Shown in pieces: positions 5,381 through 64,000 of a DNA stretch of 64,000 nt; the stretch's first letter is position 1; each line of letters opens with the position of its first letter. Location of the stretch: the IMG/VR virus record IMGVR_UViG_3300035698_029839, positions 186,001 through 250,000 of that record; one strand, 5' to 3'. The notes below the pieces were generated by a model, which ran no database searches, was not told where the DNA came from, and saw only the letters and a list, made by a program, of their open reading frames with translations. This DNA comes from a virus. The translations under genes and the position numbers were made by a program.

Positions 5381-5389
5381 GAGTAAATA

Positions 5390-5656
5390 GTGTCTGATTT
5401 ATTAGTGGGATGTAGAGTTATTATTGATGGAGAAGGCGAAGGTATTATAGTAAAATGAGACAGAGGGCCTCAAAATGATAAAATATTATGGGTTCTTTTT
5501 TCGGACGGACAATTATTTGGAAAACAAGCAGAGCATAGTTCTATAAGGATACATCCAGATGATGTTAAATTTATAGTAGCATTAAATAAAAATTATAAAC
5601 TTAGAGAAAAAATACTATCTCGAACTACAAACCGTCTTAATATTTTGGATTTATAA
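5390..5656 (+). CDS. hypothetical protein with in-frame TGA codon
   Basis: GTG at 5390 follows AGGAG at proper spacing. The frame runs 88 codons to TAA at 5654, overlapping the next ATG (TAATG), but codon 23 (5456-5458) is TGA. Both sides read as one compact protein (..GEGEGIIVK-[TGA]-DRGPQNDKILWVLFSDGQLFG..), and Trp would fit the beta-strand context. Options are TGA readthrough, a recent nonsense mutation, or two short peptides. Many neighbours use TGA as a stop, so a general code change is excluded. Confidence 0.55.
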
Positions 5657-6105: not shown

Positions 6106-6956
6106 CAACTAATATATATTTACAAAGTGATTTTCAAGAATCTTATGATAAGTATCTTCATGATCCTATGGGTAAAATCAGATGGAAAAGACTTTCTCGC
6201 GGAGGAAGAAATAGAAGAGAGATATTTAAATTATTAGAAAATTATGTAGGTGCTGTGGGAGGAAGGATAGATCATGTGGTTCCTCATGGAATAGTAAGGG
6301 ATTTATATGATAGGTATCGAGATGAAAGGATAATAGATGGTAAGGTTGAACGGAATTATAGATGGAAAGAACTTGGACTTCAACATTGTTTTAGAGATTT
6401 GGTTATTTATATAGATGAAATGGCACATAGGGGAGAAGGGAAAATAGCAGAAAATGTAGAAGGGGCACTTATTGAATATCCCGATCATTATGCTTCTGTT
6501 TTACTATCTGATAATAGAAATATTTATCCAACTTCAATATCTTATAGAGATTTGTATATCGGAGATCAAATATTTAGATTAAAATATCAATCTCTTACTG
6601 ATGGATGGAGATCTAATTGTGGGTATGTTAATATAATTTATGAAAATAGATCTCATTTATATGAGAATCAATTTACTCCTGCTTTTACAAAAAAAGAAGG
6701 GATACATATAATATCTCCTATTTTTGCTTTTGATTATATCGAAGTGAATGTAGAAAGAAGTCAATATCCTGATGGTATTCCAGAAAGATTTTATGTAGAT
6801 TTTAATGAAGCTCCTGGAATACCTGAAGAAGTAGTAGTTTGTAAACTTGGTCATGAGAGATACGGAGAGTTAATTTCATTCTATGATCTTATTTCAGAAA
6901 AAGAAATTTCCGAAATAATAGAAAAAACTTTGAAAAGTGAAAAGATATTGTTATAA
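6102..6956 (+). CDS. hypothetical protein
   Basis: 284 residues, soluble, with a basic N-terminal stretch (RWKRLSRGGRNRREIF) and several aromatic-rich strands. It overlaps the previous gene (ATGA) and the following ATPase gene (TAATG), so it probably works alongside the ATPase as a partner or substrate. No recognised family. Confidence 0.75.
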   Translation: MTTNIYLQSDFQESYDKYLHDPMGKIRWKRLSRGGRNRREIFKLLENYVGAVGGRIDHVVPHGIVRDLYDRYRDERIIDGKVERNYRWKELGLQHCFRDLVIYIDEMAHRGEGKIAENVEGALIEYPDHYASVLLSDNRNIYPTSISYRDLYIGDQIFRLKYQSLTDGWRSNCGYVNIIYENRSHLYENQFTPAFTKKEGIHIISPIFAFDYIEVNVERSQYPDGIPERFYVDFNEAPGIPEEVVVCKLGHERYGELISFYDLISEKEISEIIEKTLKSEKILL

Positions 6957-8563
6957 TGGGAATATGGTTAACAAAAAAACAATATACTAGGTATATTAAT
7001 TTTACTACGGATACAGGTAAGGAATTAGCAGATATGAATAATACCCCAGTTAAATCACCAGTGAGACACAATAATAATTTAAGTACGGCTATACAATCAG
7101 AAGTTGTAAGAAAAACAGAATTTTTGGATGATGAATATCCTTTCGGTGATTGTGAGGAGGCTCAGGTGGAAGGTGGAGCGGCTGAAACAATGAATTTAGA
7201 AGAAAAAAACAAGCAAATAGAAGAGAACTTAGCGAAAGTTAAATTTGCAGATCAAATTAAGATAGATTTTATACCCTCTATTGATTATAGAATATTGTGT
7301 AGATTTCTAGGTGTTACTACTGTAAATGACATAAAGAACCATCCCTTTCAGTCCCATCCACTTATTACTTTGATATTAATGGAGAGTCTTAATGGGTTTA
7401 TGGAACAAGAAGGATATGAAATGGTTGGAGAATTAAATTTTGACAATCATGGTAATTCTGTACCTCCTGATAAGAATCCATGGAACGTAAGGGGCAAAGA
7501 AACCACCTTTACTATAACTGGTTTTTTATTCTTTGAAAAAATAAAAGGAGAGAAGAAGGACAATGTCTCATTCTTTTTATTCTCAGATCTTGAAAGAGGT
7601 GGAGCTTCTATTACTTGTTATAGCACAGATACTAACAAATCTAAAGATATTGTTAATGATTTGCAAATATATTCCAAAAAGAACAATTGTTTAAGAGGAG
7701 CGAAACTTAAAGATGTAAACATGATTACTGCTTCTTTTTCTGAGGTAGATCTTAGAGCAGAAGATTCAAGACCAGAGTATACTTGGGACAATTATTACTA
7801 TTCTGATGAAATTAAAGATTTATTTCAATTAGAGGTTTTTGATTTTGTTGAAAATGTAAAAAAATATAACGAATGTAATATTTATAAAAGAGGGATCATT
7901 TTGCATGGTAGGCCAGGGTGTGGAAAAACCACAATCGGTAATATCCTCTGTAATATGACCCCTAACAATACGGTAATATGGATAACTCCTGAAATTTTAT
8001 CAGAGAACAATTATAAAGCTATGTCTTCGATAAAAGCTCTTTATAAATTAGCTGATTTTCTTTCGCCATGTATCATTATGCTTGAAGATTTAGATTTGTT
8101 TAGTCAGGACAGGGAAAGAGGTGGAGATGTTATTTCTCTTGGGGCGCTGATGAATATTCTTGATGGTGTTAATACTATTTCTAATTCTGTCACTATTGGC
8201 ACTACAAATAGATTGGGATCTATTGAAACAGCATTAAGAAATAGACCTGGCCGATTTGATAGAATAATAGAGATAGAATCTCTTTCAAAAGATCTTAGGA
8301 CCAAGATGTTTAAAGAAAGATTAAAAGAATGGAAAGTTTCTAAAAACACTTTAGATTATGTTGCTGATAAAACCGACGAATGGACAGGTGCAGAAGTACA
8401 AGAGTTTATTAATAGTCTTAATCTCAAACACATTAGTAGTAAAAGAAAAATCAAAAAGATGAGTCAGTCATGGGCAGAAGAGATTATAGGCACTTTGAGT
8501 AATTTCGGTGTCGGAGGATCTAGTTCTGGTTTCGGCTTCGGTGGAAAAATTAAAAATGATTGA
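6956..8563 (+). CDS. AAA+ ATPase (BCS1/CDC48-like)
   Basis: 535 residues. The N-terminal ~280 residues are unique; the C-terminal AAA+ module has Walker A GRPGCGKTT (about 317-325), Walker B IIMLEDLDLF (about 371-380), sensor-1 TTNR and the arginine-finger segment RNRPGRFDRIIEI (about 430-442). This order is typical of unfoldases and BCS1-like ATPases. The tail is Gly/Ser-rich (GVGGSSSGFGFGG). Likely remodels a protein or nucleoprotein complex in an ATP-dependent ring; substrate unknown. Coupled upstream by TAATG and overlaps the next small gene. Confidence 0.9.
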   Translation: MGIWLTKKQYTRYINFTTDTGKELADMNNTPVKSPVRHNNNLSTAIQSEVVRKTEFLDDEYPFGDCEEAQVEGGAAETMNLEEKNKQIEENLAKVKFADQIKIDFIPSIDYRILCRFLGVTTVNDIKNHPFQSHPLITLILMESLNGFMEQEGYEMVGELNFDNHGNSVPPDKNPWNVRGKETTFTITGFLFFEKIKGEKKDNVSFFLFSDLERGGASITCYSTDTNKSKDIVNDLQIYSKKNNCLRGAKLKDVNMITASFSEVDLRAEDSRPEYTWDNYYYSDEIKDLFQLEVFDFVENVKKYNECNIYKRGIILHGRPGCGKTTIGNILCNMTPNNTVIWITPEILSENNYKAMSSIKALYKLADFLSPCIIMLEDLDLFSQDRERGGDVISLGALMNILDGVNTISNSVTIGTTNRLGSIETALRNRPGRFDRIIEIESLSKDLRTKMFKERLKEWKVSKNTLDYVADKTDEWTGAEVQEFINSLNLKHISSKRKIKKMSQSWAEEIIGTLSNFGVGGSSSGFGFGGKIKND

Positions 8564-8717
8564 ATACGTTAGTACACCTGATAATTGTCCATTTCGAAGA
8601 ATAGATTTTGATGGTTTTCCAGATGGCTGTAAATTTGATGAAACAGAATGTTTAGATGATGATTTCCCTGAAGATTGTCCTTTAAGAAATGAAGATATTA
8701 TAGTTAAAAAAGATTAA
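8556..8717 (+). CDS. small Cys/Asp-rich protein
   Basis: 53 residues from ATG 8556, overlapping the end of the ATPase gene. Cys residues are spaced NCPFRR..GCKFDE..ECLDDD..DCPLRN, suggesting metal binding. The last gene before a strong terminator. Function unknown. Confidence 0.65.
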   Translation: MIEYVSTPDNCPFRRIDFDGFPDGCKFDETECLDDDFPEDCPLRNEDIIVKKD

Positions 8718-8742
8718 GACAACTGCCGAGTCCGCAACGGTT

Positions 8743-8791
8743 CCCAGCTTCCTCTTGTAAAATAGTTTTCTGTAGGAAGCTGGGATTTTTT
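8743..8791 (+). terminator. rho-independent terminator
   Basis: Perfect 11-bp stem (CCCAGCTTCCT with AGGAAGCTGGG) followed by T6. Ends the 1-8.7 kb operon. Confidence 0.92.
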
Positions 8792-8920
8792 AAAAAGATT
8801 AAAGTTCAAAAGTGATTGTGACGATAAGAAAACAGAGAGTTATCTTTTAATTCTTTAACTTCTTATTATATATGGAGTTATAGCTTTTTTCAAAAAATAA
8901 TAAAAAATGTTATTTTCTAT

Positions 8921-8948
8921 TTGACTTAAAAGTAGAAAGTAGTATAAT
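8921..8948 (+). promoter_or_regulatory. sigma70-like promoter of the Ro60 gene
   Basis: TTGACT, 16-nt spacer containing AAAGTAGAAAGTAG, TATAAT. It lies just after a terminator and before the Ro-like gene, giving it separate transcription with a ~50-nt leader. Confidence 0.85.
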
Positions 8949-9012
8949 TGCCAAAGTAGAAATTAGTATATCTAAAATAGTTAATTAGGTTGATTTTTAA
9001 AGGAGAAATAAA

Positions 9013-10740
9013 ATGGCTAAGTATGCAAATCATGTAGCAAATCCAAAGACTCCTCAAAATGAGAGAGCAAAGAGCACCCAAGTAAAAGGTAAGGCAGGTG
9101 GTTTTGTCTTTAAAGTTGATGACTGGACAAGACTTAATCGTTTCTTAATCATTGGTAGTGAAAATGGTTCTTACTACGCTTCAGAGCGTAAGTCAACTAT
9201 GGAAAACTATAATTGCATTTTGAGATGTTTGAAACTTGATGCCAAGAAAACTGTGGATACTATTGTAGAGATTAGTGATAAGGGTCGTGCGGTAAAGAAC
9301 GATCCTGCTATTTTTGCTCTGGCAGTATGTAGTGTTCACGGAGATGAAAAGACTAAGGCACATGCTAATAGTGTTATGCCTAAAGTTGCTCGTTTCTCTA
9401 CTGCTTTTTTTACGTGGATTGATGCGGTCAATACATTGAAGGAAGGTCGTAAGGGTAAGGGTCTGTTGAGGGCTATAGGAAGATGGTACACAGAGAAAGA
9501 CCCTGTAAGGCTAGCTTATCAAATTTGCAAATATCCAGGTCGTTCAGTAGGTGGTCAAAGATGGACTCATGCTGATGCTCTTCGTATGGCAAGAATTTCT
9601 CCATCTAGGGACGGCAAGCCTTCTAAAAATGGTAAGGCTTTAACTATTCCTACTGATGATCATGCAGTTGTATTCCATTATGCAACACATGGGATTACAA
9701 CTGCTAAAGTTTTGAAGGCAAGGCAGGCAGAGGAAAAAGTTACTGGCAAGAAACAAGAAGCTCCTGGTATCTCGGAAGAGCAGTATGAAGCTTTGAAAGA
9801 TAGTAAGCTTAAGTATATCTGGGCACATGAGCAATGTAAGATTGCTATGAAGAACAGTGAAGTAGTTTCTTTGATTAGTGATTACAATCTTACTAGAGAG
9901 TCTATTCCTCCTCAATTCAGAAATGAATTAGAGATACAGAAAGCATTATTGCCAGGTATGCCAATGACAGCATTGATTCGTAACTTGGGTAGTATGACCT
10001 CTTCGGGTCTTCTAAAACCTTTGAGTGATGAGACTTCAGCAGTAATTGATAAAATTACAAATGATGAAATTCTGAAGAGGAGTCGTATTCATCCTATGAC
10101 AATTATGCTAGCCCTTAAAACTTATAGTAGCGGTGCTGGTATGAGGACTACATGGAAACCAGTATCATCAATTAAAGATGCTATGGAAGATGCTTTTTAC
10201 AAAGCTTTTAACTATGTTGAGCCAACTGGAAAGAAATTTTTGTTTGGTGTTGATGTTAGTGGTTCTATGGGTTGGGGTGATACTGCTGTTATGAGTCCTC
10301 GTGAGGCAGCGGCAGTGGTGGCTATGACGTGTGCTAGAACAGAGAAGAACTATGATATAATGGGTTTTTCTCACACATTCTCTAAGCTTAATATCACTGC
10401 TAAGGATAGTTTAGATACTGTAATTAGAAGGACTTCTAATTTAAACTTTGGTGGAACTGATTGCGCACTTCCTATGATGTATGCAATTAAAAATGAATTG
10501 GATGTAGATGTATTTGTTGTCTTAACAGACAATGAAACTTGGTGTGGTGGTATTCATCCATTTGAAGCATTGAAACAGTATCGTAAGAAATTTAATAAAA
10601 ATGCAAAGCTTGCAGTGTTGGCTTTTGATAGTAATGAATTTACTATTGCTGATCCAAGTGATGCAGGTATGATGGATATCGCTGGTTTGGATTCTAACGT
10701 ACCTAAAGTGTTAGCAGAATTTGCAGCAGGTAGACTTTAA
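9013..10740 (+). CDS. TROVE-domain protein, Ro60/Rsr-like
   Basis: 575 residues, close to the ~540 of Ro60. The N-terminal ~390 residues are the helical HEAT-like TROVE ring that binds misfolded RNA and Y RNA (for example NYNCILRCLKLDAKKTVDTIVEISDKGRA). The C-terminal von Willebrand A-like domain has an intact MIDAS: DVSGSMG (about 411), GGTD (about 479) and LTDNE (about 503). Bacterial Rsr works with Y RNAs in RNA quality control with exonucleases. Its own promoter and flanking terminators make it a one-gene unit. GC content and codon choice (GGT, CGT) are above its neighbours, suggesting high expression. The 61.5-64 kb region holds Y-RNA-like elements. Confidence 0.95.
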   Translation: MAKYANHVANPKTPQNERAKSTQVKGKAGGFVFKVDDWTRLNRFLIIGSENGSYYASERKSTMENYNCILRCLKLDAKKTVDTIVEISDKGRAVKNDPAIFALAVCSVHGDEKTKAHANSVMPKVARFSTAFFTWIDAVNTLKEGRKGKGLLRAIGRWYTEKDPVRLAYQICKYPGRSVGGQRWTHADALRMARISPSRDGKPSKNGKALTIPTDDHAVVFHYATHGITTAKVLKARQAEEKVTGKKQEAPGISEEQYEALKDSKLKYIWAHEQCKIAMKNSEVVSLISDYNLTRESIPPQFRNELEIQKALLPGMPMTALIRNLGSMTSSGLLKPLSDETSAVIDKITNDEILKRSRIHPMTIMLALKTYSSGAGMRTTWKPVSSIKDAMEDAFYKAFNYVEPTGKKFLFGVDVSGSMGWGDTAVMSPREAAAVVAMTCARTEKNYDIMGFSHTFSKLNITAKDSLDTVIRRTSNLNFGGTDCALPMMYAIKNELDVDVFVVLTDNETWCGGIHPFEALKQYRKKFNKNAKLAVLAFDSNEFTIADPSDAGMMDIAGLDSNVPKVLAEFAAGRL

Positions 10741-10751
10741 TCTTAAAACAT

Positions 10752-10785
10752 AAGGCAATGGAGAGTAAATCCCATTGCCTTTTTT
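10752..10785 (+). terminator. rho-independent terminator
   Basis: 10-bp stem AAGGCAATGG / CCATTGCCTT followed by a T run, directly after the Ro-like gene. Confidence 0.92.
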
Positions 10786-10839
10786 GCTCTTTATAAATTA
10801 GTAGTGTCAAGGAAGATTATTTAATAAAGGAGATGCACC

Positions 10840-11421
10840 ATGTCCCTATGGGATCAGAATAAGATGTTATACATTTTACACAGAAACGGAGTTAGCAGAA
10901 AGAATATTTTATTTATAATGAATGATTTAAAAACTTCTGAAACTTTTGGTACAGAAAATGATTTTGAAGATGAATTTGAAGATGATTGGGAGCTTGTAGA
11001 ACAAAAAGCATTTTTGTTATTTGAAAGCAATGTATCAAGTAAAGCAAAAATACTTGCTTTGAGAAACATAAAGAAAAAAGAAGAAGAATTTGAAAATACA
11101 AGGAAATGTCAGTACCTTACGGATCAAGAGGGAAGGATTCAGACAAAACGTAAAGAGCTTATAGAACAAGGGGTTATAGAACCTGATAAACTAACTCATC
11201 AAAAAACTCTTAAACTTACTACAAGATATGGTAGGTCTCCTTTACATGAAGCAATTGCTATGAGAGATATTCGTTTAGTAGAAAAATATCTTAAAAGTGA
11301 AAAATATCTTGACAAAGTAGATAATAACGGTCATACTGCTATGGAGATGGCATATTATGAGAATTATACTGATGCCTTAGCTCTATTTAAAAAGTACACA
11401 TTGACCAAAAAAGTTGGTTAA
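10840..11421 (+). CDS. ankyrin-repeat protein
   Basis: 193 residues. The C-terminal part carries about two ankyrin repeats (RSPLHEAIAMRDIRLVEKYLKSE, then DNNGHTAMEMAYYENYTDAL). The N-terminal ~100 residues are acidic and helical. It starts after AAAGGAGATGCACC. Ankyrin repeats mediate protein-protein contacts; the partner is unknown. Confidence 0.8.
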   Translation: MSLWDQNKMLYILHRNGVSRKNILFIMNDLKTSETFGTENDFEDEFEDDWELVEQKAFLLFESNVSSKAKILALRNIKKKEEEFENTRKCQYLTDQEGRIQTKRKELIEQGVIEPDKLTHQKTLKLTTRYGRSPLHEAIAMRDIRLVEKYLKSEKYLDKVDNNGHTAMEMAYYENYTDALALFKKYTLTKKVG

Positions 11422-11428
11422 TTTGAAA

Positions 11429-11453
11429 ATTCCAGACAAGTGGTTTTTTAAAA
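11429..11453 (+). repeat. TTCCAGACAAGTGG repeat, copy 1
   Basis: TTCCAGACAAGTGG followed by T6 A4, between the ankyrin gene and the gene at 11499. A full-consensus copy of a dispersed intergenic element. Confidence 0.9.
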
Positions 11454-11498
11454 TACTAACGTAGAAATGAATAAATATTTTTTTTACGGAAAGGTTTT

Positions 11499-11945
11499 AT
11501 GATGAAAGTAAAAGTTGGAACAAATGAGTATTTGATGCATTGGGAGAAGCGTAAATTCAATCCTCTTACTGGCAAAAATACGGATAAAGAATTGGAATCC
11601 ACTGATTGTATTATCAGCAGATTGAATTCTGATGGAACGACAGCGGTGATTGCACGAGGCCATGTAAGTCAAACTTCTTGTGATCCGTCAAACGGTGTTA
11701 TGGCAAGAAGGTTGTCTTTTATTAAGGCAATCAAAGGTATGGATAGACTAGCACGTAAGGCATTAGGCGATGAGTACAATAGAACTTGTCGCGTTGTGCC
11801 GAGAACTCTTGGTCAGAAGAATCGCAAGTTAAGAAATCGTATCCTTGCTCTTCAAAAAGCATTAGCTATGGCTAATAGCATGATCAGTGGTGGAGAATCT
11901 CATACAGAAAAATCTGAGAAAGTAATAAAATCAGTAATGATTTAA
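11499..11945 (+). CDS. hypothetical basic protein
   Basis: 148 residues starting after GGAAAGG. Basic and soluble, with ARGHVSQTSCDPSNGVMARRLSFIKAIKGM in the middle. It lies alone between a TTCCAGACAAGTGG element and a terminator. No family recognised. Confidence 0.8.
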   Translation: MMKVKVGTNEYLMHWEKRKFNPLTGKNTDKELESTDCIISRLNSDGTTAVIARGHVSQTSCDPSNGVMARRLSFIKAIKGMDRLARKALGDEYNRTCRVVPRTLGQKNRKLRNRILALQKALAMANSMISGGESHTEKSEKVIKSVMI

Positions 11946-12022
11946 GAAGAGGAAAATTTCTCTTATTCTGGAACATATATCTTACAGATATATTGCAGAT
12001 ATATTACAATTGAATAGTCAGC

Positions 12023-12055
12023 AGGGATGTGAGTTTGTGTTTACATCCCTTTTTT
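12023..12055 (+). terminator. rho-independent terminator
   Basis: 8-bp stem AGGGATGT / ACATCCCT followed by T6. Confidence 0.9.
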
Positions 12056-12131
12056 ATTTTAAAAGAGGAACTAGCTACTCCTTTATCGAATATAATAAAT
12101 AAAGGTTTATTATATAGAAGGGGAGTATAAA

Positions 12132-13028
12132 ATGAAAAAATGGACACCAAAAGAAGATAGTTTTTTAGAAAATAATGTTGGATCTTTAACATATAAACAG
12201 ATGGCGGACAATCTAAAAAGAACAAGAATGTCTGTGATGAAGCATTGTCAATGGAGAGGATTATCTAACTCTATACTGAGTGAAAAAACTCGATTTAAGA
12301 AAATATATAAAGTTAATGATAATTTTTTTAGTAACTATAATATTTTATCTTGTTACTACGCTGGATTGATAGCTTCTGATGGAAGCATTCATAAAAAAAG
12401 TAATGCGATATCAATAACTCAAGCTAAAAGTAGATTATCTTGTTTAGAAAAATTTAAGAAAGATGCTGGTTATAATGGAGTTATATATGGCCCTACAAAA
12501 ACAATAGGACAAGATGCTTACGCTCTGGTTATTAGTAGTAAAAAATGGAAAAAAGATTTAAAAAATAATTTTATGATTACACCTAATAAATCTTTAACAC
12601 TTTTACCTCCTGATTTAACTGATAAAAAAATGATAATTAGTTTTATAAATGGTTTGATTGATGGGGATGGGTCTGTTGGAGCTTATAATTATAAGAATAA
12701 AAAAGATATCGTTCCTATAATTACTTTTTGCGGAACAAAAAGTATAGTCGAGTGGGTTGCTAATAATTTAAATAAATATTTTATAATTAAAAATAGGACA
12801 ATACGTTATAGGCAGATAATTTCTAACAATACTTATTTTTTAAGTTTCAGTGGATGTAGGGTTATAAAATTTTATCAGTATCTTGTAAAAAATGATATCC
12901 CCTTTATGCGTTGTAAATGGAGCAGAATGGTAGATAAGTTATTTGTAAAAGGGCTGGATTACTATTTAAAAAACAAAAGAAAGACTAATAAGAGGGATAA
13001 TAATGGAAGATTTTGTAAAATTAGTTAA
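12132..13028 (+). CDS. LAGLIDADG homing endonuclease
   Basis: 298 residues with two LAGLIDADG helices, YYAGLIASDGS (about residue 76) and FINGLIDGDGS (about residue 173), so it can act as a monomer with two pseudo-symmetric halves. The acidic catalytic Asp is present in both. The N-terminal ~45 residues (WTPKEDSFLENNVG..RTRMSVMKHCQWRGLS) resemble a SANT/Myb-like DNA-binding helix set. Free-standing, overlapping the start of the RNA ligase gene by 26 bases, so it has probably inserted beside its target. Very AT-rich codon use compared with the ligase. Confidence 0.92.
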   Translation: MKKWTPKEDSFLENNVGSLTYKQMADNLKRTRMSVMKHCQWRGLSNSILSEKTRFKKIYKVNDNFFSNYNILSCYYAGLIASDGSIHKKSNAISITQAKSRLSCLEKFKKDAGYNGVIYGPTKTIGQDAYALVISSKKWKKDLKNNFMITPNKSLTLLPPDLTDKKMIISFINGLIDGDGSVGAYNYKNKKDIVPIITFCGTKSIVEWVANNLNKYFIIKNRTIRYRQIISNNTYFLSFSGCRVIKFYQYLVKNDIPFMRCKWSRMVDKLFVKGLDYYLKNKRKTNKRDNNGRFCKIS

Positions 13029-14211
13029 AGAATTAAGTATAGAACATCCTGCAAGAGTCATAGAATTCTCTGACTTAACTAAGGGATTGTTCGCAGAAGT
13101 GGCAAAGGGTAATATTAATGTAGGTTATCACCCAGAGTTTCCACATCTTGCTATATTTAAATACTCTCTAGGTTGTGTTATGGAAAGAAACTGGAATAAA
13201 TTTACTATTATGGCTAGAGGTCTAATATTAGACCTTAAAAATAAAAGTGTTATCGCTACTCCGTTCATAAAATTTTGGAATTATGATGAGATTTTTTCTG
13301 CTATATCTATTCTTGAGCCAGAGTTTACTATTACAGAGAAGATGGATGGCTCACTAGGTATAATGTTCTTCTATGCAGATAAGTTTAGATTTGCAACAGC
13401 AGGTTCATTTATATCTGAACAAGCTCAATGGGCAGAACAATGGATGTACAACAAGATGCCTTTGGATAAAATAGATAAGACTAATACTTATTTGTTTGAG
13501 ATAATTTATCCAGAGAATAAGATTGTGGTTACTTATGATTTTGAAGGACTAGTTTTGCTTGGTATCTTTGATACTTATGGTTTAGAATATAACTATGAGC
13601 AATTAAAGTGGGAAGCTTCATATATGGGAACATCTTGTACTCCACAACATGATTTCGCAGATATGGACAGCATACTTAATAATGCTAAGACTTTAGATAG
13701 CAACAATGAAGGATATGTAATACGGTTCAAGAACGGGATACGTTTGAAGATTAAGGGCGATGAATATGTTCGTATACATAGATTAATATCAAGAGTAACA
13801 CCTCTTGCTATCTGGGAATCTATCATAAACGGAGATGACTTAACAGAAGTAAAGGAAGAATTACCAGAAGAGATGGAAAAAGACTTTGATGCTATAACTG
13901 CAATTCTTTACGAGAAGTTAGAAATCTTTGTAAAAGAAGTAGAAGCTCTGCATTCTGAAACTAAGTTAATGTCGGATAAAGCATTGGGTCTTTATATACA
14001 AAGAAATCCCGAAGGTTGGGGAGATAGAACATTTAAAAGATCTTTGAGATATATTTTTCCTATGAGAAAAAATAAGTTCTATGAATCTCTTAAAGAAAAA
14101 GGATCGTTAGGTCGTAAGAAGATTTTTAATGAGTTTAGACCTACATCTAATAGATTAGAAGGTTATACACCATCATCAGCAGTTAATAGATTTGCCGATA
14201 TGGACACCTAA
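13003..14211 (+). CDS. T4 Rnl1-family RNA ligase
   Basis: 402 residues. Nucleotidyltransferase motif I is EKMDGS (catalytic Lys about residue 113), with motif III-like FEIIYPENKIV, motif IV EGYVI (about 236) and motif V LKIKGDEYV (about 246). This is the Rnl1 (RnlA) pattern: ATP-dependent joining of 5'-phosphate and 3'-OH RNA ends. In T4 it repairs tRNA cut by host anticodon nuclease. The tRNA array in this window makes the same role plausible. The C-terminal ~100 residues are helical. No polynucleotide kinase gene is visible nearby. Confidence 0.93.
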   Translation: MEDFVKLVKELSIEHPARVIEFSDLTKGLFAEVAKGNINVGYHPEFPHLAIFKYSLGCVMERNWNKFTIMARGLILDLKNKSVIATPFIKFWNYDEIFSAISILEPEFTITEKMDGSLGIMFFYADKFRFATAGSFISEQAQWAEQWMYNKMPLDKIDKTNTYLFEIIYPENKIVVTYDFEGLVLLGIFDTYGLEYNYEQLKWEASYMGTSCTPQHDFADMDSILNNAKTLDSNNEGYVIRFKNGIRLKIKGDEYVRIHRLISRVTPLAIWESIINGDDLTEVKEELPEEMEKDFDAITAILYEKLEIFVKEVEALHSETKLMSDKALGLYIQRNPEGWGDRTFKRSLRYIFPMRKNKFYESLKEKGSLGRKKIFNEFRPTSNRLEGYTPSSAVNRFADMDT

Positions 14212-14261
14212 ATCACTTTTCACTTTTCAAAAAAACAATTTGTAAGTGAAAGTGATTTAGG
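14207..14261 (+). repeat. 18-bp inverted repeat overlapping ligase stop and next promoter
   Basis: CCTAAATCACTTTTCACTT (14207-14225) is complementary to AAGTGAAAGTGATTTAGG (14244-14261) with one bulged T. The left arm includes the ligase stop codon; the right arm is the spacer of a promoter. Could be a terminator, an operator or both. Confidence 0.85.
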
Positions 14262-14268
14262 TTATAAT
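14240..14268 (+). promoter_or_regulatory. sigma70-like promoter with GTGAAAGTG box
   Basis: TTGTAA, 17-nt spacer with GTGAAAGTG, TATAAT. A start near 14275 makes the ATG at 14279 almost leaderless, so the next ATG (14306) is preferred for translation. Confidence 0.8.
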
Positions 14269-14305
14269 TAAGGCAGTAATGTTAACTACTACTGAAGGCG
14301 TGCAA

Positions 14306-14740
14306 ATGAAAAGTGAATATGGGTGTTATGTTTTAATGTTGTCGTATGTTGATGAGAACTGGATGGATATAGGCGGTAATATTTATCCACCAGAAGGTTT
14401 TGTAGAAGCTAAAAATTTTACAAGAGATATTGATGTCAGATTTGGATTGAATGGGATTTTATGGGGAAAAACTTGTTATTTTCCATATGAGCAAATTAAC
14501 AAAGGGAATTGGACGGTTGTAAAAACAGAATTGATTGACGATTTGATTAAAACAGAACATTATTATAATCGTTATAAATTTCCAAATGGATGGATAGTTT
14601 ATTCTGGTAGTTTAAGAGACTCTGCTAAATATATAGTAAGACATAAAAATGATGACAGTTTTTCCGAAGATGGAAAATGGATTCAAGCAGAAGAAATAGC
14701 TGGATCTCGTCAATGGATGAAAGATCATAATTTAGAGTAG
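14306..14740 (+). CDS. hypothetical protein
   Basis: About 144 residues. ATG 14306 follows GAAGG and is chosen over ATG 14279, which lies at the expected transcription start. Soluble, Trp/Tyr-rich; no recognised domain. Confidence 0.7.
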   Translation: MKSEYGCYVLMLSYVDENWMDIGGNIYPPEGFVEAKNFTRDIDVRFGLNGILWGKTCYFPYEQINKGNWTVVKTELIDDLIKTEHYYNRYKFPNGWIVYSGSLRDSAKYIVRHKNDDSFSEDGKWIQAEEIAGSRQWMKDHNLE

Positions 14741-14829
14741 GAATAAATGGTGCTAAAGCATTTTGTATTTTTTTATATTTTCTATTTAAATATTTTTAAT
14801 AAATAAAAATTATAGAAAGAAGGTGTATT

Positions 14830-15516
14830 ATATATTTTATTGGTGACGTTCATGAAGAATTCAAAACCTATGAATATATTGTTTTGAAAATGCAACACAA
14901 AGGAGGTAGAAAAGGTATGGAATTTTCTCTTCAAGTTGGAGATATGGGTATTGGATTTCCTGATTATGGAGATTATTCTAAAGATGGTAAAAGTTGGTCT
15001 CCTATAATGCCTTCTGATCATATGTTTTTTAATGGCAATCATGATAATCCTTTATTATGTAAAACTCATCCTAACTATTTAGGAGATTGGGGGTATATCC
15101 CTGATCCAAATATGTTTTATGTTTCTGGCGGTTTTTCTATAGATCATGCTTATAGATTTGTTGATATGACTTGGTGGAAAGATGAAGAATTGAATAATGA
15201 AGAAATGTCTAAAGCTTTAGATTCTTATAAAATTAATAAACCAAAAATAGTGGTATCTCATGAATGTCCATTAGGAGTTAAAATAGATTTTGTTACTAAT
15301 TCATGGAAGTTTGATGTCAACAGTAGAACAGAGGAATTACTACAAAGTATGTTTGAAATACATCAACCTGACTACTGGATTTTTGGACATCATCATCAAA
15401 GAAAAGAGTTGGATAAAAATGGAACTCATTTTGTGTGTTTAGATGAGTTGATAGGTGGTAAAATAAATGATTGTATTTATGAAATAAAAGGTTTAACTTG
15501 GGAAGGATATAAATAA
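14830..15516 (+). CDS. calcineurin-like metallophosphoesterase, non-canonical start
   Basis: The full set of metal-binding motifs is present: GDVH near the N-terminus, GDMG (about 37), GNHD (about 68), SHE (about 140) and GHHH (about 186). The first motif lies upstream of any ATG, GTG or TTG start in frame (TTG 14884 would remove it). AAGAAGG at 14817-14823 points to ATA 14830 or ATT 14827 as start. It hydrolyses a phosphoester; the substrate could be protein, nucleotide or RNA end. Tightly linked to the next three genes. Confidence 0.8.
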   Translation: MYFIGDVHEEFKTYEYIVLKMQHKGGRKGMEFSLQVGDMGIGFPDYGDYSKDGKSWSPIMPSDHMFFNGNHDNPLLCKTHPNYLGDWGYIPDPNMFYVSGGFSIDHAYRFVDMTWWKDEELNNEEMSKALDSYKINKPKIVVSHECPLGVKIDFVTNSWKFDVNSRTEELLQSMFEIHQPDYWIFGHHHQRKELDKNGTHFVCLDELIGGKINDCIYEIKGLTWEGYK

Positions 15517-15827
15517 TGCCGTATATACTACAAGAACAAAGAGATAGATTAGATCCTATGATAGAACATCTTTCAAAAGATTTGTTAGAGCATCTTGATG
15601 TAGGAGAGTATAATTATGTAATGACTAAGCTTATGCATGAATTTATATTGAAGAAGGGTATAAAATATAAAAACTTCAGTGCCGCTAAAGCAGTGTTGAT
15701 GGATGCTAGAGATGAACTTAGTAGAATTCCAATGGGATTTTATGAAGATGAAAAAATAAGAGCCAATGGTTTTATTAGTGAATTAGATTTACACTCGCGT
15801 AGGAGCAAGGGAGATTCGACAATATGA
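15516..15827 (+). CDS. hypothetical protein
   Basis: 103 residues, helical, soluble. Overlaps the stop of the phosphoesterase (TAATG) and the start of the glycohydrolase, so it is co-translated with them. Function unknown. Confidence 0.75.
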   Translation: MPYILQEQRDRLDPMIEHLSKDLLEHLDVGEYNYVMTKLMHEFILKKGIKYKNFSAAKAVLMDARDELSRIPMGFYEDEKIRANGFISELDLHSRRSKGDSTI

Positions 15828-16606
15828 TTGGAGCTATAATAGGCGATGTAGTAGGTTCTCCTTATGAAGGGAGAAGAATGAATTTCTTCGATTATGATTT
15901 TCCTCTCTTCAACGAAAGATCTACGTTTACAGATGATACTATTTTAACTGTTGCTACTGCCAAGGCCATACTTGAGGATATTCCTTATGGAACAGCGTAT
16001 CTTGAGCTAGGTAGAAAATATAGACGTAAGGGTTATGGTAGTGCTTTTGAAGAGTGGTTATGTTCTCCTGACCCTCAACCGTATGGTAGCTGGGGCAATG
16101 GCTCGGCTATGAGAATTAGCCCTATCGGTCTTTATTTTGATACTCCATCAAAGGTTGGTATAGAGGCTGCGAAGAGTTCTAAAATAACTCATAATCATCT
16201 TGATGCTATACAGGGTGCATCAGCTATTGCCTTAGCTATTCATTATGCTAAATGTGAGGGCAATAAGGAACAGATTAAAGATATTGTAAAAGCTATGTAT
16301 AATTATGAGTTTGAAAAGGATTGGGAATTTTATAGAAATAATTATAAATTTGATATTACCTGTAAGGGCACTGTTATTCAGGCATTAACCGTTTTCTTTG
16401 AATCAAATAGTTTTGAAGATTGCATAAGGAAATCTGTGTTAATGGGAGGAGATACAGATACATTAGCTTGTATAGCGGGTTCTGTAGCGGAAGCATATTA
16501 TAAAGATATACCTGAAGATATAGCAACAGAAGCTTTAGGCAAAATTCCTGATGAGTTTTTAACTATTGTAAGAGAATTTTACAAAACGATGAGAACAAGT
16601 ATATGA
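15824..16606 (+). CDS. ADP-ribosylglycohydrolase (DraG/ARH family)
   Basis: 260 residues. Starts with MIGAIIGDVVGSPYEG, then FTDDTILT (about 36-43) and GGDTDTLACIAGSVAEAY (about 207-224); these Asp/Thr residues bind the two Mg ions of the ARH fold. Removes ADP-ribose from proteins or nucleic acids. In a phage it could undo host ADP-ribosylation defences or regulate host enzymes, as an inference. Coupled by ATGA overlaps between two phosphoesterase-type genes. Confidence 0.93.
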   Translation: MIGAIIGDVVGSPYEGRRMNFFDYDFPLFNERSTFTDDTILTVATAKAILEDIPYGTAYLELGRKYRRKGYGSAFEEWLCSPDPQPYGSWGNGSAMRISPIGLYFDTPSKVGIEAAKSSKITHNHLDAIQGASAIALAIHYAKCEGNKEQIKDIVKAMYNYEFEKDWEFYRNNYKFDITCKGTVIQALTVFFESNSFEDCIRKSVLMGGDTDTLACIAGSVAEAYYKDIPEDIATEALGKIPDEFLTIVREFYKTMRTSI

Positions 16607-37258: not shown

Positions 37259-37295
37259 AGAATCTATTAATTTTATTTAAATGAAAGGTTTTAAG

Positions 37296-38579
37296 ATGAG
37301 TAGACAAAAAAAGGGTAGTGGTAAAAAAAAGGGAGGGTCTGCCCCCACTAGAAATAGGCAGTCAGTTGTTCGCGAGCTTACTCTTGCGGATAATACATCA
37401 GTGGTTCCTCAAGATATTCAGAAAAAGAAGGCTCCATATTTTGAGATAGATGTTATTAAAAAGTCTCAAAAAGGCGTAGATTATTTCTCTGGAGAAATGA
37501 GCTTAGCTCAATTAGCAGCTTTAACTCATGTAGATAACTATGACGGAGATCGTGCTGATGAGGGTGGTGGTCAAAGAGCTTTGTGCGAGTTAAGAGGAAA
37601 ACAATTCCGAGAATTTATCGTGGATTGTAATAATGTTTGTTTCGCAGAAATTCTTCTTAATGACAGAAACGGAGAGGTAGAGTTTAGATCTTTAAAAGAT
37701 ATGGGCATTACAGTTTCCGAACATGCTAAACTTGGGGCTATGCATGGGTTTTTAAAAATACCGTCTGGTGTTAAGTTGTTTGTTTACGATGGGCAAACAA
37801 GACGTTTTGGTTATTTGAGTCTGCTTCATTTTGATTTAGATATGTTTGGAACAGAAGCTTATAAGGATTATAAACATTTGAATATTCCTTTCTGTCTGTG
37901 TCAAGTTTCCGCTCGCGAAGAAACTCTTTTGTTTCTTCAGCATAATAAACAAATTTCAGTTCCCAATGACCATAAAGCTATGGTCTCGTGGCATGCTAAT
38001 AAAGACTTAAGTGATATGAAACATTATACTTATTCCGAAAAAGCAAGTTCTATTATTGCAGGGTTGATTTACATCATGGATAGAGATAGAAAAGGTCCTT
38101 GGTTTAATAGAATTGTTCAGCCTGATCTTTCTAAAGAAGAGAATAAGAGACGTTTTGGAACACACGGTGGTTTTAATACTGGCTTAAAACATTTCATTGG
38201 TTGGTTAAATAGAAATTACTGGAGTCCTGAAACTACAATCTCCGAAAAGAGCGAGGACTTGGCTGATATTTGTACAACATATTGGAGAGCTATGCAAAAG
38301 ACTTGTCCTAAGATATGGAGGAATCCTGAGAATTATATTCAGTTAAGACCTCACGGAATATCAACTTTGAGCTTACTGATGCATACTTTGTATATTGACT
38401 TTTTTGATAGAAATATTGACTGGAATATTGGAAATCTTCATACTTTTTTGAAAAAAAGTAAACTTATTACCACTCCTATAAAGTGGGAAATTGGTGGAGA
38501 TCTTCATAAAAGAGGAGGCAATTACAAAGCTCTTCAGTCCGTTGAATTTGATATTTATCAGCAAATTAAAAAGGGATAG
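37296..38579 (+). CDS. DGQHR-domain protein (DndB/DpdB-like)
   Basis: About 427 residues from ATG 37296. The signature VYDGQTRRFGYL (about 163-174) matches the DGQHR motif, with an adjacent ParB-like segment (NIPFCLCQVSAREETLLFLQHNKQ) typical of DndB/DpdB-type proteins. Those families accompany DNA phosphorothioation or 7-deazaguanine modification. No other such gene is visible here, so it may act alone or with host enzymes. N-terminus is Lys/Gly-rich. Own promoter and terminator. Confidence 0.8.
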   Translation: MSRQKKGSGKKKGGSAPTRNRQSVVRELTLADNTSVVPQDIQKKKAPYFEIDVIKKSQKGVDYFSGEMSLAQLAALTHVDNYDGDRADEGGGQRALCELRGKQFREFIVDCNNVCFAEILLNDRNGEVEFRSLKDMGITVSEHAKLGAMHGFLKIPSGVKLFVYDGQTRRFGYLSLLHFDLDMFGTEAYKDYKHLNIPFCLCQVSAREETLLFLQHNKQISVPNDHKAMVSWHANKDLSDMKHYTYSEKASSIIAGLIYIMDRDRKGPWFNRIVQPDLSKEENKRRFGTHGGFNTGLKHFIGWLNRNYWSPETTISEKSEDLADICTTYWRAMQKTCPKIWRNPENYIQLRPHGISTLSLLMHTLYIDFFDRNIDWNIGNLHTFLKKSKLITTPIKWEIGGDLHKRGGNYKALQSVEFDIYQQIKKG

Positions 38580-60178: not shown

Positions 60179-60892
60179 ATGAAACAAAAAACAGGGCCTA
60201 AAAGGACTAGTATTATATGGCAGATGTCAAAAAAAGATTTTACAGAAAATGTGAAAAAAAGTTCTACTTTTAAAGAGATATTAAAATATTTTGGATTAGA
60301 AAATAAAGGTAGCAATTACAAAACATTAAAAAAAAGATTAGAGGAAGAAAATATAAATTATTCTCATATTCCTACAGGAGTAGGATGTAACAAAGGAATG
60401 AAAATAAATAGAAAAGCTATCTCATTAGAAAAAGTAATGATAGAAAATTCTACTTATTGCAGGGGGACTCTTAAAAAAAGATTATTAAAGAATGGTATGT
60501 TAGAAAATAAATGTATGATCTGTGATCAACTACCTGAACATAATGGGATTAAATTAGTAATGGTTTTAGATCATATTAATGGAACTCCTAATGATCATAG
60601 ATTAGAAAATTTAAGATTACTTTGTCCTAATTGCAATAGCCAACAATCAACTTTTGCTGGAAAAAGGCATAAAAAACATTATTATTGTGAAAAATGTGGG
60701 AATAAAAGAAAAAATAAACAAAGTAAATATTGTTTTAGTTGTTCTGTTAAATTAAATGGGCAAAATAGAAGAAAAGTTAAAAATAGACCATCTAAAGAAA
60801 AATTATTAAAAGAAATAAAAGAAACTAATTATTGTGCTGTTGGTAGAAAATATGATGTAAGTGATAGTGCTATTAGAAAATGGTTGAAATGA
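60179..60892 (+). CDS. HNH homing endonuclease, copy 1
   Basis: 237 residues after AATAGGAGATTGTA. N-terminal helical DNA-binding region, then HNH core CMICDQ..VLDHINGTPNDHRLENLRLLCPNCNSQQ. A zinc knuckle pair (CEKC..CFSC) and a C-terminal helix-turn-helix (NYCAVGRKYDVSDSAIRKWLK) follow. Clear paralogue of 62788. Free-standing within the tRNA array; tRNA genes are typical targets. Confidence 0.93.
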   Translation: MKQKTGPKRTSIIWQMSKKDFTENVKKSSTFKEILKYFGLENKGSNYKTLKKRLEEENINYSHIPTGVGCNKGMKINRKAISLEKVMIENSTYCRGTLKKRLLKNGMLENKCMICDQLPEHNGIKLVMVLDHINGTPNDHRLENLRLLCPNCNSQQSTFAGKRHKKHYYCEKCGNKRKNKQSKYCFSCSVKLNGQNRRKVKNRPSKEKLLKEIKETNYCAVGRKYDVSDSAIRKWLK

Positions 60893-61299: not shown

Positions 61300-61518
61300 A
61301 TGAAAGAAGTCTTGATAGAATTAGTAAAAAGGGTAAGTAGGAAAGCAGTTATATTAGCAATAGCTATGGTGTTGGTATATATGGTTATTATAACACCGAA
61401 TGCCGTAAATGCAGTGATAGCTATAGGGGTGATTTCTGGTTTATCAATAGTAGGAGCAGGACTTCAATTTTATTTAGATCTTAAAAAGATCAAAGATGAC
61501 GAAACAGATAAAATTTAA
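61300..61518 (+). CDS. small membrane protein
   Basis: 72 residues after AAAGGGAG; two membrane segments (about 15-34 and 37-58) and a charged tail. Lies within the RNA gene cluster; its stop codon overlaps the start of a Y-RNA-like element. Function unknown. Confidence 0.65.
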   Translation: MKEVLIELVKRVSRKAVILAIAMVLVYMVIITPNAVNAVIAIGVISGLSIVGAGLQFYLDLKKIKDDETDKI

Positions 61519-61663
61519 GCAGGTTGAATGTGAGTAAGTTATCGCTTATGGAGCCTGATGTGGATGGTTCGATTCCTCCTCTCTCGATTACAAATTGTTC
61601 GAGAGATAGCTTAACGGTAGAGCGCAGTAAAAACACTTATTCCTCCCACATATCTGCTTTTTT
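61517..61663 (+). ncRNA. Y-RNA-like element 1 with permuted tRNA-like module
   Basis: Ends pair (AAGCAG/CTGCTT, then TAAG/CTTA), with conserved GTTGA (61523), GTTATCG (61538) and ACATAT (61648), and a T6 end. Inside, in permuted order: a T-arm (loop TTCGATT, stem GGAGG/CCTCC with one bulged T), a 7-bp acceptor stem TCTCTCG/CGAGAGA closed by a 13-nt loop, and a D-arm GCTT/GAGC with GG in the loop. The anticodon arm is replaced by the end-pairing stem. This is the layout of bacterial YrlA Y RNAs that bind Ro. Confidence 0.75.
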
Positions 61664-61672
61664 AAACTTAGA

Positions 61673-61761
61673 AATATGGTGATAGGGCCTACAAAGCTTG
61701 GGTCAGCCAACTACCCTAGGGACGCAAGTCATTGGTCTGGGGTCGAGTCCCAGTCATATTT
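61673..61761 (+). tRNA. tRNA-like gene, identity unclear
   Basis: Acceptor AATATGG/TCATATT and T-arm CTGGG/CCCAG (loop GTCGAGT) are good. The middle does not give a standard anticodon arm with T33; GGGT/ACCC and TTGG/CCAA hairpins compete. May be degenerate, contain an insertion, or be class II. Confidence 0.5.
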
Positions 61762-61846: not shown

Positions 61847-61973
61847 ACACAGGTTGATCGCATGAAGGTTATCGGATAAAACATTTTTTCTTCAAACAAA
61901 AAATGCAAGTAGGGTTCAAACCCTTACAACCCAGAAATGGGAAAATTCTTCTGCACTAACATATCTGTGTTTT
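61847..61973 (+). ncRNA. Y-RNA-like element 2
   Basis: Outer stem ACACAG/CTGTGT; GTTGA (61853); inner stem GCATGAAG/CTTCTGC with one bulge; GTTATCG (61868); 3' block ACATAT before the outer strand. The interior has a CATTTTTT/AAAAAATG hairpin, a T-arm-like TAGGG TTCAAAC CCTTA and a GAAA-capped CCCA/TGGG stem. It lacks a clear D-arm. It ends at the first base of tRNA-Asp. Confidence 0.65.
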
Positions 61974-62131: not shown

Positions 62132-62166
62132 TTTGGAGTTACTATGAATAAGAATTCTAGAAACTT

Positions 62167-62244
62167 ATTTTAGTACTTTAGTCGTCTAAGGGCAAGGATA
62201 CCTGTGCAAGCAGGAGATATGGTGTTCGAGTCGTCATCTAAATA
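62167..62244 (+). tRNA. degenerate tRNA, possibly Cys(GCA)
   Basis: T-arm TGGTG/CGTCA (loop TTCGAGT) and a 3' acceptor TCTAAAT are present. The 5' acceptor (ATTTTAG) pairs only with a one-base insertion. The anticodon arm CCTG TGCAAG CAGG has 4 bp and a 6-nt loop holding T-GCA. Probably decayed. Confidence 0.5.
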
Positions 62245-62256
62245 TTACTCCTAAAT

Positions 62257-62787: not shown

Positions 62788-63477
62788 ATGAGAAAAAGAA
62801 CAAGTGTTGTGTGGAAGATATCAATAGAAGAATTAAAAAAGATAGTAAAAAAGAATGATAGTTTTGCAAAAATTTTAAAACATTTTGGGATGGCAATAGC
62901 AAGTGGAAACTATAAAACATTAAAAAAAAGATTAAATTATGAAAATATAAGTTATTCTCATATATCTCAAGGGCTTAATAATAATAAAGGAAGAAAATTT
63001 CCAGAAAGAGCTATTCCCTTAAAAGAAGTAATGGTAAAAAACTCTACCTATTGTAGGGGAACTCTTAAAAAAAGATTATTAAAAAAGGGTTTATTAGAAA
63101 ATAAATGTAATATTTGTGGACAAATTTCTGAACATAATAATATTAAGTTAATAATGGTTTTAGATCATATAAATGGAGTTTCTAATGATCATCGCGTAGA
63201 GAATTTAAGATTGCTTTGTCCTAATTGTAATAGCCAACAAAAAACATTTGCGGGAAGAAATTCTGTAAGAAAAAAATATAACTGTATTACTTGTGGTAAA
63301 AAAATTACAAAACATTCAAAATTGTGTAAAAGTTGCAGTGCTAGATTGCAAAAAAGAAAAGTTAAAAATAGACCTTCAGTAGAACAATTATTAAAAGAAA
63401 TAAAAGAAACTAATTATTGTGTTGTTGGTAGGAAATATGAAGTAAGTGATAATGCAGTAAGAAAATGGTTAAAATAA
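62788..63477 (+). CDS. HNH homing endonuclease, copy 2
   Basis: 229 residues after GATAGGAGATAAA. Paralogue of 60179 with the same layout: DNA-binding N-terminus, CNICGQ..VLDHINGVSNDHRVENLRLLCPNCNSQQ, zinc pair CITC..CKSC, and a C-terminal helix-turn-helix (NYCVVGRKYEVSDNAVRKWLK). The two copies may home to different tRNA-linked sites. Confidence 0.93.
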   Translation: MRKRTSVVWKISIEELKKIVKKNDSFAKILKHFGMAIASGNYKTLKKRLNYENISYSHISQGLNNNKGRKFPERAIPLKEVMVKNSTYCRGTLKKRLLKKGLLENKCNICGQISEHNNIKLIMVLDHINGVSNDHRVENLRLLCPNCNSQQKTFAGRNSVRKKYNCITCGKKITKHSKLCKSCSARLQKRKVKNRPSVEQLLKEIKETNYCVVGRKYEVSDNAVRKWLK

Positions 63478-63740: not shown

Positions 63741-63769
63741 TTGAAAAGTGAAAGAAAATCCGATATAGT
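63741..63769 (+). promoter_or_regulatory. sigma70-like promoter with GTGAAAG box
   Basis: TTGAAA, 17-nt spacer with AGTGAAAGAA, TATAGT; upstream of two Y-RNA-like elements. A CATAAC-GAAA-GTTATG hairpin (63779-63794) follows. Confidence 0.75.
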
Positions 63770-63825: not shown

Positions 63826-63899
63826 AAACGGGTTGAAGTCTAAAAGTTATCGATCCTTGAAAATCAAACACACTTTTTGACACACCATATCCGTTTTTT
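63826..63899 (+). ncRNA. Y-RNA-like element 3 (minimal)
   Basis: Outer stem AAACGG/CCGTTT; GTTGA (63832); inner stem GTC..AAAG / CTTT..GAC; GTTATCG (63846); 3' block ACCATAT; T6 end. The apex is only a TTGA-AAA-TCAA hairpin, with no tRNA-like module. This smallest copy defines the core of the element. Confidence 0.7.
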
Positions 63900-63908
63900 C
63901 TAAAATAT

Positions 63909-64000
63909 GCATGTGGGTTGATTGATATTGGTTATCGATAATTACTGTGAAAAAGTGCAAGTAAGGATCAAAAAAGAGATTTAGGTAAAGTTAGATTGAG
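63909..64000 (+). ncRNA. Y-RNA-like element 4, cut by window end
   Basis: GTTGA (63917), a 7-bp hairpin ATTGATA/TATCGAT around TTGGT, GTTATCG (63931) and TGCAAGTAAGG, which matches TGCAAGTAGGG of element 2. The 3' half lies beyond the window. Confidence 0.55.

What the first reader, a model, noticed from the sequence alone, without database searches (positions are those of the whole stretch)
61517..61663. Candidate phage Y RNA with a permuted tRNA-like module (YrlA-type)
A T-arm and 3' acceptor strand come before a perfectly complementary 7-nt 5' acceptor strand and D-arm, with a 13-nt closing loop. The place of the anticodon arm is taken by a stem joining the two ends. From memory, bacterial YrlA RNAs have this order and bind Ro with the end stem. 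A Ro60-like gene is present in the same window. A phage Ro-Y RNA pair would be new to me.
Basis: partly seen in the sequence, partly recalled or inferred. Interest (0 to 1): 0.95.

Follow-up and report, generated by a model that had tools for sequence, protein, structure and literature searches.

The report
Phage Y RNAs mimicking tRNAs
A giant bacterial virus carries a protein called Ro60 and at least six small RNAs built to bind it, several of them disguised as rearranged transfer RNAs; such pairs were already known from other viruses and bacteria, but this set is unusually large and sits inside the virus's transfer-RNA gene array.

Summary
At 61517-61659 there is an 8-bp end stem, a conserved head (GGUUGA...GUUAUCG), and a permuted tRNA-like module: T-arm, 3' acceptor strand, 13-nt loop, complementary 5' acceptor strand, D-arm. 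It is one of six such elements in this 297,710-bp virus record (four in the window). Related jumbo-phage records carry 7 and 2. The acceptor stem is replaced by a different but complementary sequence in every ortholog and paralog: 49 of 49 pairs across 7 RNAs. This rules out two abutting decayed tRNAs. A covariance model built only from these RNAs finds full-length matches in Ro60-encoding phages (Sixama, LinStu, FuzzBuster, Phosso, Karp) and directly upstream of Ro60 in three bacterial MAGs fetched by their Ro60 protein alone. The identification as a YrlA-type Y RNA with its Ro60 partner is well supported. The claimed novelty is not: phage Y RNAs, and TROVE proteins as RNA-repair platforms in jumbo phages, are in the literature. 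Less ordinary are the number and spread of paralogs (71 to about 257 nt), their tight punctuation by tRNAs, and their distance (51 kb) from Ro60. Ro60 binding, expression and function are inferred, not shown.

The parts
61517..61659 (+). Y1: YrlA-type Y RNA with permuted tRNA-like module (T-run to 61663)
   Evidence: CM R1 112.8 bits full length (it is a training sequence); orthologs in G001 and G003 with compensatory changes
61517..61524 (+). 5' strand of Y1 end stem (AAGCAGGU)
   Evidence: 8/8 pairs with 61652-61659
61522..61544 (+). Y head motif GGUUGA...GUUAUCG (predicted Ro60-binding region)
   Evidence: corresponds to GGUCCGA of animal Y RNAs (PMC11277228)
61562..61579 (+). T-arm (one bulged U)
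   Evidence: sequence
61580..61586 (+). 3' acceptor strand UCUCUCG
   Evidence: 7/7 with 61600-61606
61600..61606 (+). 5' acceptor strand CGAGAGA
61607..61623 (+). U8-A9 and D-arm with G18G19
   Evidence: sequence; helix 5
61652..61659 (+). 3' strand of Y1 end stem (AUCUGCUU)
61847..61970 (+). Y2: Y RNA with T-arm but no D-arm, fitting between tRNA-Val and tRNA-Asp with 1- and 2-nt gaps
   Evidence: R1 41.4 bits E 9.8e-7; 8-bp end stem; tRNA borders
63826..63896 (+). Y3: minimal 71-nt Y RNA without tRNA-like module, behind a promoter-like site at 63741-63769
   Evidence: R1 39.1 bits E 3.3e-6; orthologs in G001 and G003; promoter scan
63911..64000 (+). Y4: start of a long (about 257 nt) Y RNA that runs past the window end (record 249911-250167)
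   Evidence: head; 7-bp end stem; 77.8% identity over 189 nt to G001
9013..10740 (+). Ro60/Rsr protein (TROVE + Ro60 vWA domain)
   Evidence: NCBIfam Rsr 418.6 bits, under its curated cut-off of 900; PDB 1yvp E 2.6e-135
13003..14211 (+). T4 Rnl1-type RNA ligase, conserved near Ro60 in four relatives
   Evidence: PF09511 E 5.3e-15; 59-68% identity in L008, L010, L033, L034
6956..8563 (+). AAA ATPase upstream of Ro60, in the same place in all five close relatives

Best explanation
61517-61659 encodes a phage YrlA-type Y RNA. It is one of at least six Y RNAs in this jumbo phage that are proposed ligands of the phage's own Ro60 protein. Shown by sequence comparison: the conserved end stem and head, the permuted tRNA-like module kept by compensatory change, the homology to Y RNAs next to Ro60 in other phages and bacteria, and the Ro60 gene in the same genome. 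Inferred: several Y RNAs are cut from the tRNA-array transcript by tRNA processing (their ends lie 1-7 nt from tRNA ends), while Y3 has its own promoter. The end stem binds the outside of the Ro60 ring. The tRNA-like module, which has a closed acceptor loop and no anticodon and so cannot be charged or decode, docks tRNA-handling enzymes onto the Ro60 particle or keeps them off. With the RNA ligase and queuosine-salvage genes near Ro60, the tmRNA, and 33 or more tRNAs, the particle most likely serves RNA surveillance and tRNA repair during infection, against host nucleases that cleave tRNAs.
For: Identity: head motif 4 in window, 0 expected, 6, 7 and 2 in three related records. 49/49 acceptor pairs with all sequences different, cross-pairing mostly 2-5 of 7. 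89.5% of cells paired against 66.3% shuffled, covariation 0.585 against 0.236, 0 of 500 shuffles, slid controls at most 50% paired. Full-length Rfam YrlA matches to paralogs, E 4.4e-5 and 3.8e-4. Model R1 finds Sixama 62.8, LinStu 59.8, FuzzBuster 59, Phosso 50.7 and Karp 44.6 bits, and hits directly 5' of Ro60 in three MAGs chosen by protein only, 44.1, 28.6 and 27.9 bits. Ro60 identity. Processing: Y2 fills the gap between two tRNAs in both phages. Repair context: conserved AAA-Ro60-ank-Rnl1 block and tmRNA. Precedents: PMC7824862, PMC7790460.
Against: Y1 itself scores only 20 bits with Rfam YrlA, like a pair of adjacent tRNAs, and no paralog reaches the gathering score of 69. The MFE fold does not contain every arm. 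The Y genes lie 51 kb from Ro60 rather than beside it. R1 and pair counts on A4 are partly fitted to the structure, and 7 of the 15 rows trained the model. No RNA or binding data exist. No RtcB was found. The repair role rests on gene company only.
Confidence: 0.82

Rival explanations
1. Two unrelated decayed tRNAs abut by chance: a 3' half followed by a 5' half.
For: The element lies in a dense tRNA array with other tRNA remnants, and the Rfam YrlA model also fires weakly on true adjacent tRNAs.
Against: 7/7 complementarity between strands of different tRNAs occurs in 1% of pairings, yet all 7 RNAs tested have it with different sequences. The module always sits between a Y head and a matching tail. 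The arrangement recurs beside Ro60 in unrelated phages and bacteria.
Confidence: 0.01
2. The RNAs are Y-like and expressed, but the tRNA-like module works mainly as a soluble decoy for tRNA-cleaving or tRNA-modifying enzymes, with Ro60 only stabilising the RNA.
For: Elbow elements (T-loop, D-loop G18G19) are kept while the anticodon arm is absent; PMC7790460 proposes competitive inhibition of an anticodon nuclease for Salmonella YrlA.
Against: Y3 has no tRNA-like module and Y2 has no D-arm, but both keep the end stem and head, so Ro60 binding rather than the module is the common denominator. A decoy without an anticodon would suit only nucleases that read the elbow or acceptor.
Confidence: 0.25
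3. As in Deinococcus RYPER, the Y RNAs tether Ro60 to host PNPase, directing decay of structured host RNAs.
For: Known mechanism of the Deinococcus Y RNA (reviewed in PMC8058203, PMC4726728).
Against: No element specific for PNPase could be tested; no phage PNPase was seen in the window families.
Confidence: 0.25
4. A permuted tRNA gene that is circularised and matured into a working tRNA.
For: The order 3' half before 5' half is that of permuted tRNA genes.
Against: There is no anticodon arm; its place is taken by the Y stem. The acceptor strands are joined by short loops (4-13 nt) conserved only in being loops.
Confidence: 0.01

Closest known systems
YrlA RNA, Rfam RF02553 (bacterial Y RNA with tRNA-like domain; Salmonella, mycobacteria, mycobacteriophages)
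   Same: Same order T-arm, 3' acceptor strand, short loop, 5' acceptor strand, D-arm inside a long end stem (alignment); Ro60 ortholog in the genome
   Different: Scores below the curated cut-off; unlinked to Ro60; six or seven paralogs, of which only three are clearly YrlA-like
Y RNAs of Ro60-encoding actinophages (LinStu/Bxz1, FuzzBuster, Sixama, Karp)
   Same: Head GGYYGA...GGUUAYC, tail CAYRUC, about three paralogs per phage, tRNA-like module in at least one; Sixama's lie in a tRNA array
   Different: Fewer copies, GC-rich, usually directly upstream or downstream of Ro60
Sinorhizobium jumbo phage Phosso Y RNAs
   Same: Jumbo phage; Y RNAs far from Ro60 (24 kb against 290 kb in the record)
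   Different: Distant sequence; fewer strong matches
Metazoan Y RNAs (RF00019) and Ro60
   Same: End stem with a conserved GGUCCGA-like site and a 3' U-run; Ro60 protein homologous
   Different: No Rfam RF00019 match; no tRNA-like module in animals
TROVE/Rnl1 RNA-repair sets of jumbo phages (PMC7824862)
   Same: Ro60, an ATP-grasp RNA ligase and many tRNAs together
   Different: That review, as far as read, names a tRNA-like partner from cellular organisms and does not describe the phage RNA itself

Membership tests
YrlA-type bacterial Y RNA | Ro60/Rsr ortholog in the same genome | tested here: met
   TROVE + vWA_Ro60 at 9013-10740; PDB 1yvp E 2.6e-135
YrlA-type bacterial Y RNA | End stem joining 5' and 3' ends with a conserved, partly unpaired GG(U/C)(U/C)GA site | tested here: met
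   8/8 pairs, GGUUGA in all 15 phage copies found (the search pattern required it); helix 1 98.9% paired with change on both sides in 4 of 6 pairs
YrlA-type bacterial Y RNA | Permuted tRNA-like module (T-arm, acceptor, D-arm; no anticodon arm) | tested here: met
   Sequence; compensatory changes in T, acceptor and D stems
YrlA-type bacterial Y RNA | Homology to Y RNAs beside Ro60 elsewhere | tested here: met
   Model R1 hits in five other phages and three MAGs
YrlA-type bacterial Y RNA | Gene close to Ro60 (usual, not required) | tested here: not met
   51 kb apart; Phosso shows the same separation
YrlA-type bacterial Y RNA | Bound by Ro60 in cells | not testable with these tools
   No binding data
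YrlA-type bacterial Y RNA | Transcribed as a stable small RNA; carries tRNA-type modifications | not testable with these tools
   No RNA data
Rfam RF02553 (by curated cut-off) | Score of at least 69 bits | tested here: not met
   Y1 20.4, Y5 37.2, G001 Y6 34.0 bits. Phage Y RNAs next to Ro60 in LinStu, Sixama and FuzzBuster also fail it (33-47 bits), so the cut-off does not separate Y RNAs from others here
Ro60/Rsr protein | TROVE and Ro60-type vWA domains above Pfam cut-offs | tested here: met
   107 and 207 bits against cut-offs of 23 and 27.7
Ro60/Rsr protein | NCBIfam equivalog Rsr cut-off (900 bits) | tested here: not met
   418.6 bits, E 3.1e-125: homolog, not a same-function call by that rule

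The most novel reading that the evidence does not exclude
These jumbo phages run a diversified Y RNA system: six or seven Y RNAs of 71 to about 257 nt, several released from a tRNA operon by tRNA punctuation, each presenting a different module (tRNA-like, T-arm only, none, or large folded domains as in Y4 and Y7) on one Ro60 ring, as interchangeable adaptors for counter-defence against tRNA-targeting nucleases.
Probability: 0.25. Interest if true: 0.72.

Novelty: new member of a known kind. Interest (0 to 1): 0.45.

Why it matters
It extends tRNA-mimicking Y RNAs with a Ro60 partner to a group of jumbo phages. It supplies the likely 'tRNA-like partner' of the jumbo-phage TROVE proteins, and it gives a set of natural module swaps on one protein. 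That makes a long-standing question, what bacterial and phage Y RNA modules do, testable by comparing paralogs. The covariance model made here also detects Y RNAs that Rfam's cut-off misses.

Tried and rejected
Two abutting decayed tRNAs: rejected by covariation and recurrence. Free-energy z-score: uninformative. Partial Rfam YrlA or R1 matches (model positions about 25-110): rejected as evidence because ordinary tandem tRNAs give them, and RF02553 rings in 7 of 14 control genomes. A viral-collection pattern scan with a variable gap gave 9 matches that, by eye, lack the pairing end stem and were judged chance. Narrow head patterns found only the two relatives already known. Terminase search to place the phage: no match with PF03237, and no nucleotide match to named phages, so the host is unknown. 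RtcB: absent in the four records. Y4 folding energy is not above shuffles (z -0.47) and Y7 is borderline (z -1.92), so their inner domains are supported only by the end stem, the head and, for Y4, conservation in G001. Derivation of the modules from the phage's own tRNAs: no close acceptor match except G001 Y5 (12 of 14 bases to the G000 tRNA-Tyr), not pursued. The primary papers on bacterial Y RNAs (Chen 2014; Sim 2018, 2020) are not held; statements about them rest on papers citing them and on memory.

Full report
What is there. The window is bases 186001-250000 of a 297,710-base virus record. The element starts on the stop codon of a 72-codon ORF and ends in a T-run. Folding energy alone is unremarkable (z -1.46), and the proposed stems cost almost nothing relative to the MFE (-36.5 against -36.8 kcal/mol), so the case rests on comparison.

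It is one of a family. The head GGUUGA-N8-11-GUUAUCG occurs four times in the window (0 in 100 shuffles) and six times in the record (0 for the reversed pattern). Each head has a matching 3' partner (ACAUC or AUAUC followed by the complement of the 5' end): Y1 143 nt, Y2 124 nt, Y3 71 nt, Y4 about 257 nt, Y5 and Y6 131 and 109 nt. Ro60-guided relatives give G001 (350,866 bases, Ro60 84% identical), with all six in the same order plus a seventh beside its tmRNA, and G003 (547,943 bases, 73%), with Y1 and Y3. Other Ro60 relatives are fragments without a detected Y RNA, which shows nothing because the contigs are incomplete.

Covariation. Y1, Y5 and Y6 in G000 and G001, and Y1 in G003, carry the permuted module. 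Their acceptor stems are, for example, UCUCUCG/CGAGAGA, UCCCCUG/CAGGGGA, AGGAUUG/CAAUCCU, CGCGGAG/CUCUGUG and UGCUCAC/GUGAGUA. All 49 acceptor pairs and 35 T-stem pairs are standard, while strands taken from different RNAs mostly pair at 2-5 of 7 positions. The D-arm is replaced by a plain hairpin in G000 Y6. On a model-fitted alignment of 15 RNAs, 89.5% of cells are paired (66.3% after shuffling, at most 50% when slid) and the covariation score is 0.585 (0.236 shuffled; 0 of 500), with changes on both sides in all five helices. The alignment leans toward the structure and 7 rows trained the model; the manual count does not depend on that alignment.

Membership. Rfam YrlA matches G000 Y5 (37.2 bits, E 4.4e-5) and G001 Y6 (34.0 bits, E 3.8e-4) over positions 1-114, below the curated 69 bits. 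Window Y1 scores 20.4, no better than a tandem tRNA pair. The reciprocal test is stronger. Model R1, trained only on the jumbo-phage RNAs, finds full-length matches in Gordonia phage Sixama (62.8 bits), Mycobacterium phage LinStu (59.8, just upstream of Ro60), Microbacterium phage FuzzBuster (59.0, likewise), Sinorhizobium phage Phosso (50.7) and Streptomyces phage Karp (44.6). It also hits just 5' of Ro60 in three bacterial MAGs fetched by Ro60 protein alone (44.1, 28.6, 27.9 bits). The head varies as GGUUGA, GGUCGA, GGCCGA and GGCCGG, which I read as the counterpart of the GGUCCGA site that animal Ro60 recognises (PMC11277228). The protein is a clear Ro60 (TROVE and Ro60 vWA; PDB 1yvp E 2.6e-135).

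How it likely works. Shown: homology, structure conservation, a Ro60 gene in the same genome, and gene order. Y2 fills the space between tRNA-Val and tRNA-Asp with gaps of 1 and 2 nt in G000, and sits as tightly between two tRNAs in G001. G003 Y1, G001 Y6 and G000 Y5 start 2-7 nt after a tRNA. Inferred: these Y RNAs are released by tRNA 5' and 3' processing; Y3 and G001 Y7 instead follow promoter-like sites, although promoter-like matches in the region are no more frequent than in shuffles. The end stem binds Ro60; the closed-loop tRNA mimic recruits or occupies tRNA-handling proteins. Around Ro60, an AAA ATPase (all five close relatives), an ankyrin protein (five) and a T4 Rnl1-type ligase (four) recur, and a queuosine-salvage protein recurs in four. 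A tmRNA and at least 33 tRNAs are present, and RtcB is not. This fits an RNA surveillance and tRNA repair role in infection, as proposed for jumbo-phage TROVE proteins (PMC7824862), and YrlA has been suggested to inhibit an anticodon nuclease competitively (PMC7790460). I put about 0.45 on that function and about 0.95 on the identity as a Y RNA; the rival functions listed overlap with it and are not exclusive.

What is known and what is new. Y RNAs in mycobacteriophages are reported (Chen et al. 2014, as cited in PMC12282133). A Vibrio jumbo phage with Ro60 has been discussed in the same terms (PMC7765460). The permuted fold of a bacterial Y RNA has been solved (PDB 6CU1, as cited in PMC11472068). 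So Y1 is a new member of a known kind. The larger, more varied set and its tRNA punctuation are unusual by the comparison made here (three heads seen in each of LinStu, FuzzBuster and Sixama), but I could not check them against the primary papers.

Noticed in passing
L023 about 900-1220 (record G000 176900-177220); also G001 (L021) and G003 (L047): A conserved non-coding stretch of about 290 nt with pairing ends lies directly upstream of the phage tmRNA in three related records; no Rfam match.
   Followed up: partly
record G000 177330-177682: Phage-encoded tmRNA (95 bits), also in G001, G003 and G005.
   Followed up: partly
L021 1746-1959 (G001 264245-264458): Seventh Y RNA (Y7, 214 nt) with a perfect 8-bp end stem and a large folded middle, behind a strong promoter-like site and upstream of the tmRNA.
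   Followed up: partly
63911 to beyond the window end (G000 249911-250167): Y4, a long Y-headed RNA 77.8% identical to G001 over 189 nt; nature of its inner domain unknown, no Rfam match.
   Followed up: partly
L054 about 4709-4904 (Poribacteria MAG): Upstream of a bacterial Ro60 gene, a Y-like RNA appears to carry two tRNA-like modules in tandem.
   Followed up: no
60179-60892 and 62788-63477: Two similar HNH/zinc-ribbon genes sit inside the tRNA array, with relatives at other positions in the arrays of G001 and G003; likely mobile homing-type endonucleases.
   Followed up: partly
61671-61761 and 62165-62246: tRNA-like sequences not called by ARAGORN or Rfam, possibly divergent or decayed tRNAs.
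   Followed up: no
4415-16606: Genes for queuosine salvage, AAA ATPase, Ro60, ankyrin protein, Rnl1 ligase and ADP-ribosylglycohydrolase form a neighbourhood largely conserved among Ro60 relatives.
   Followed up: partly
37281-38579: DndB/DGQHR-like protein in the phage (possible DNA-modification interplay).
   Followed up: no
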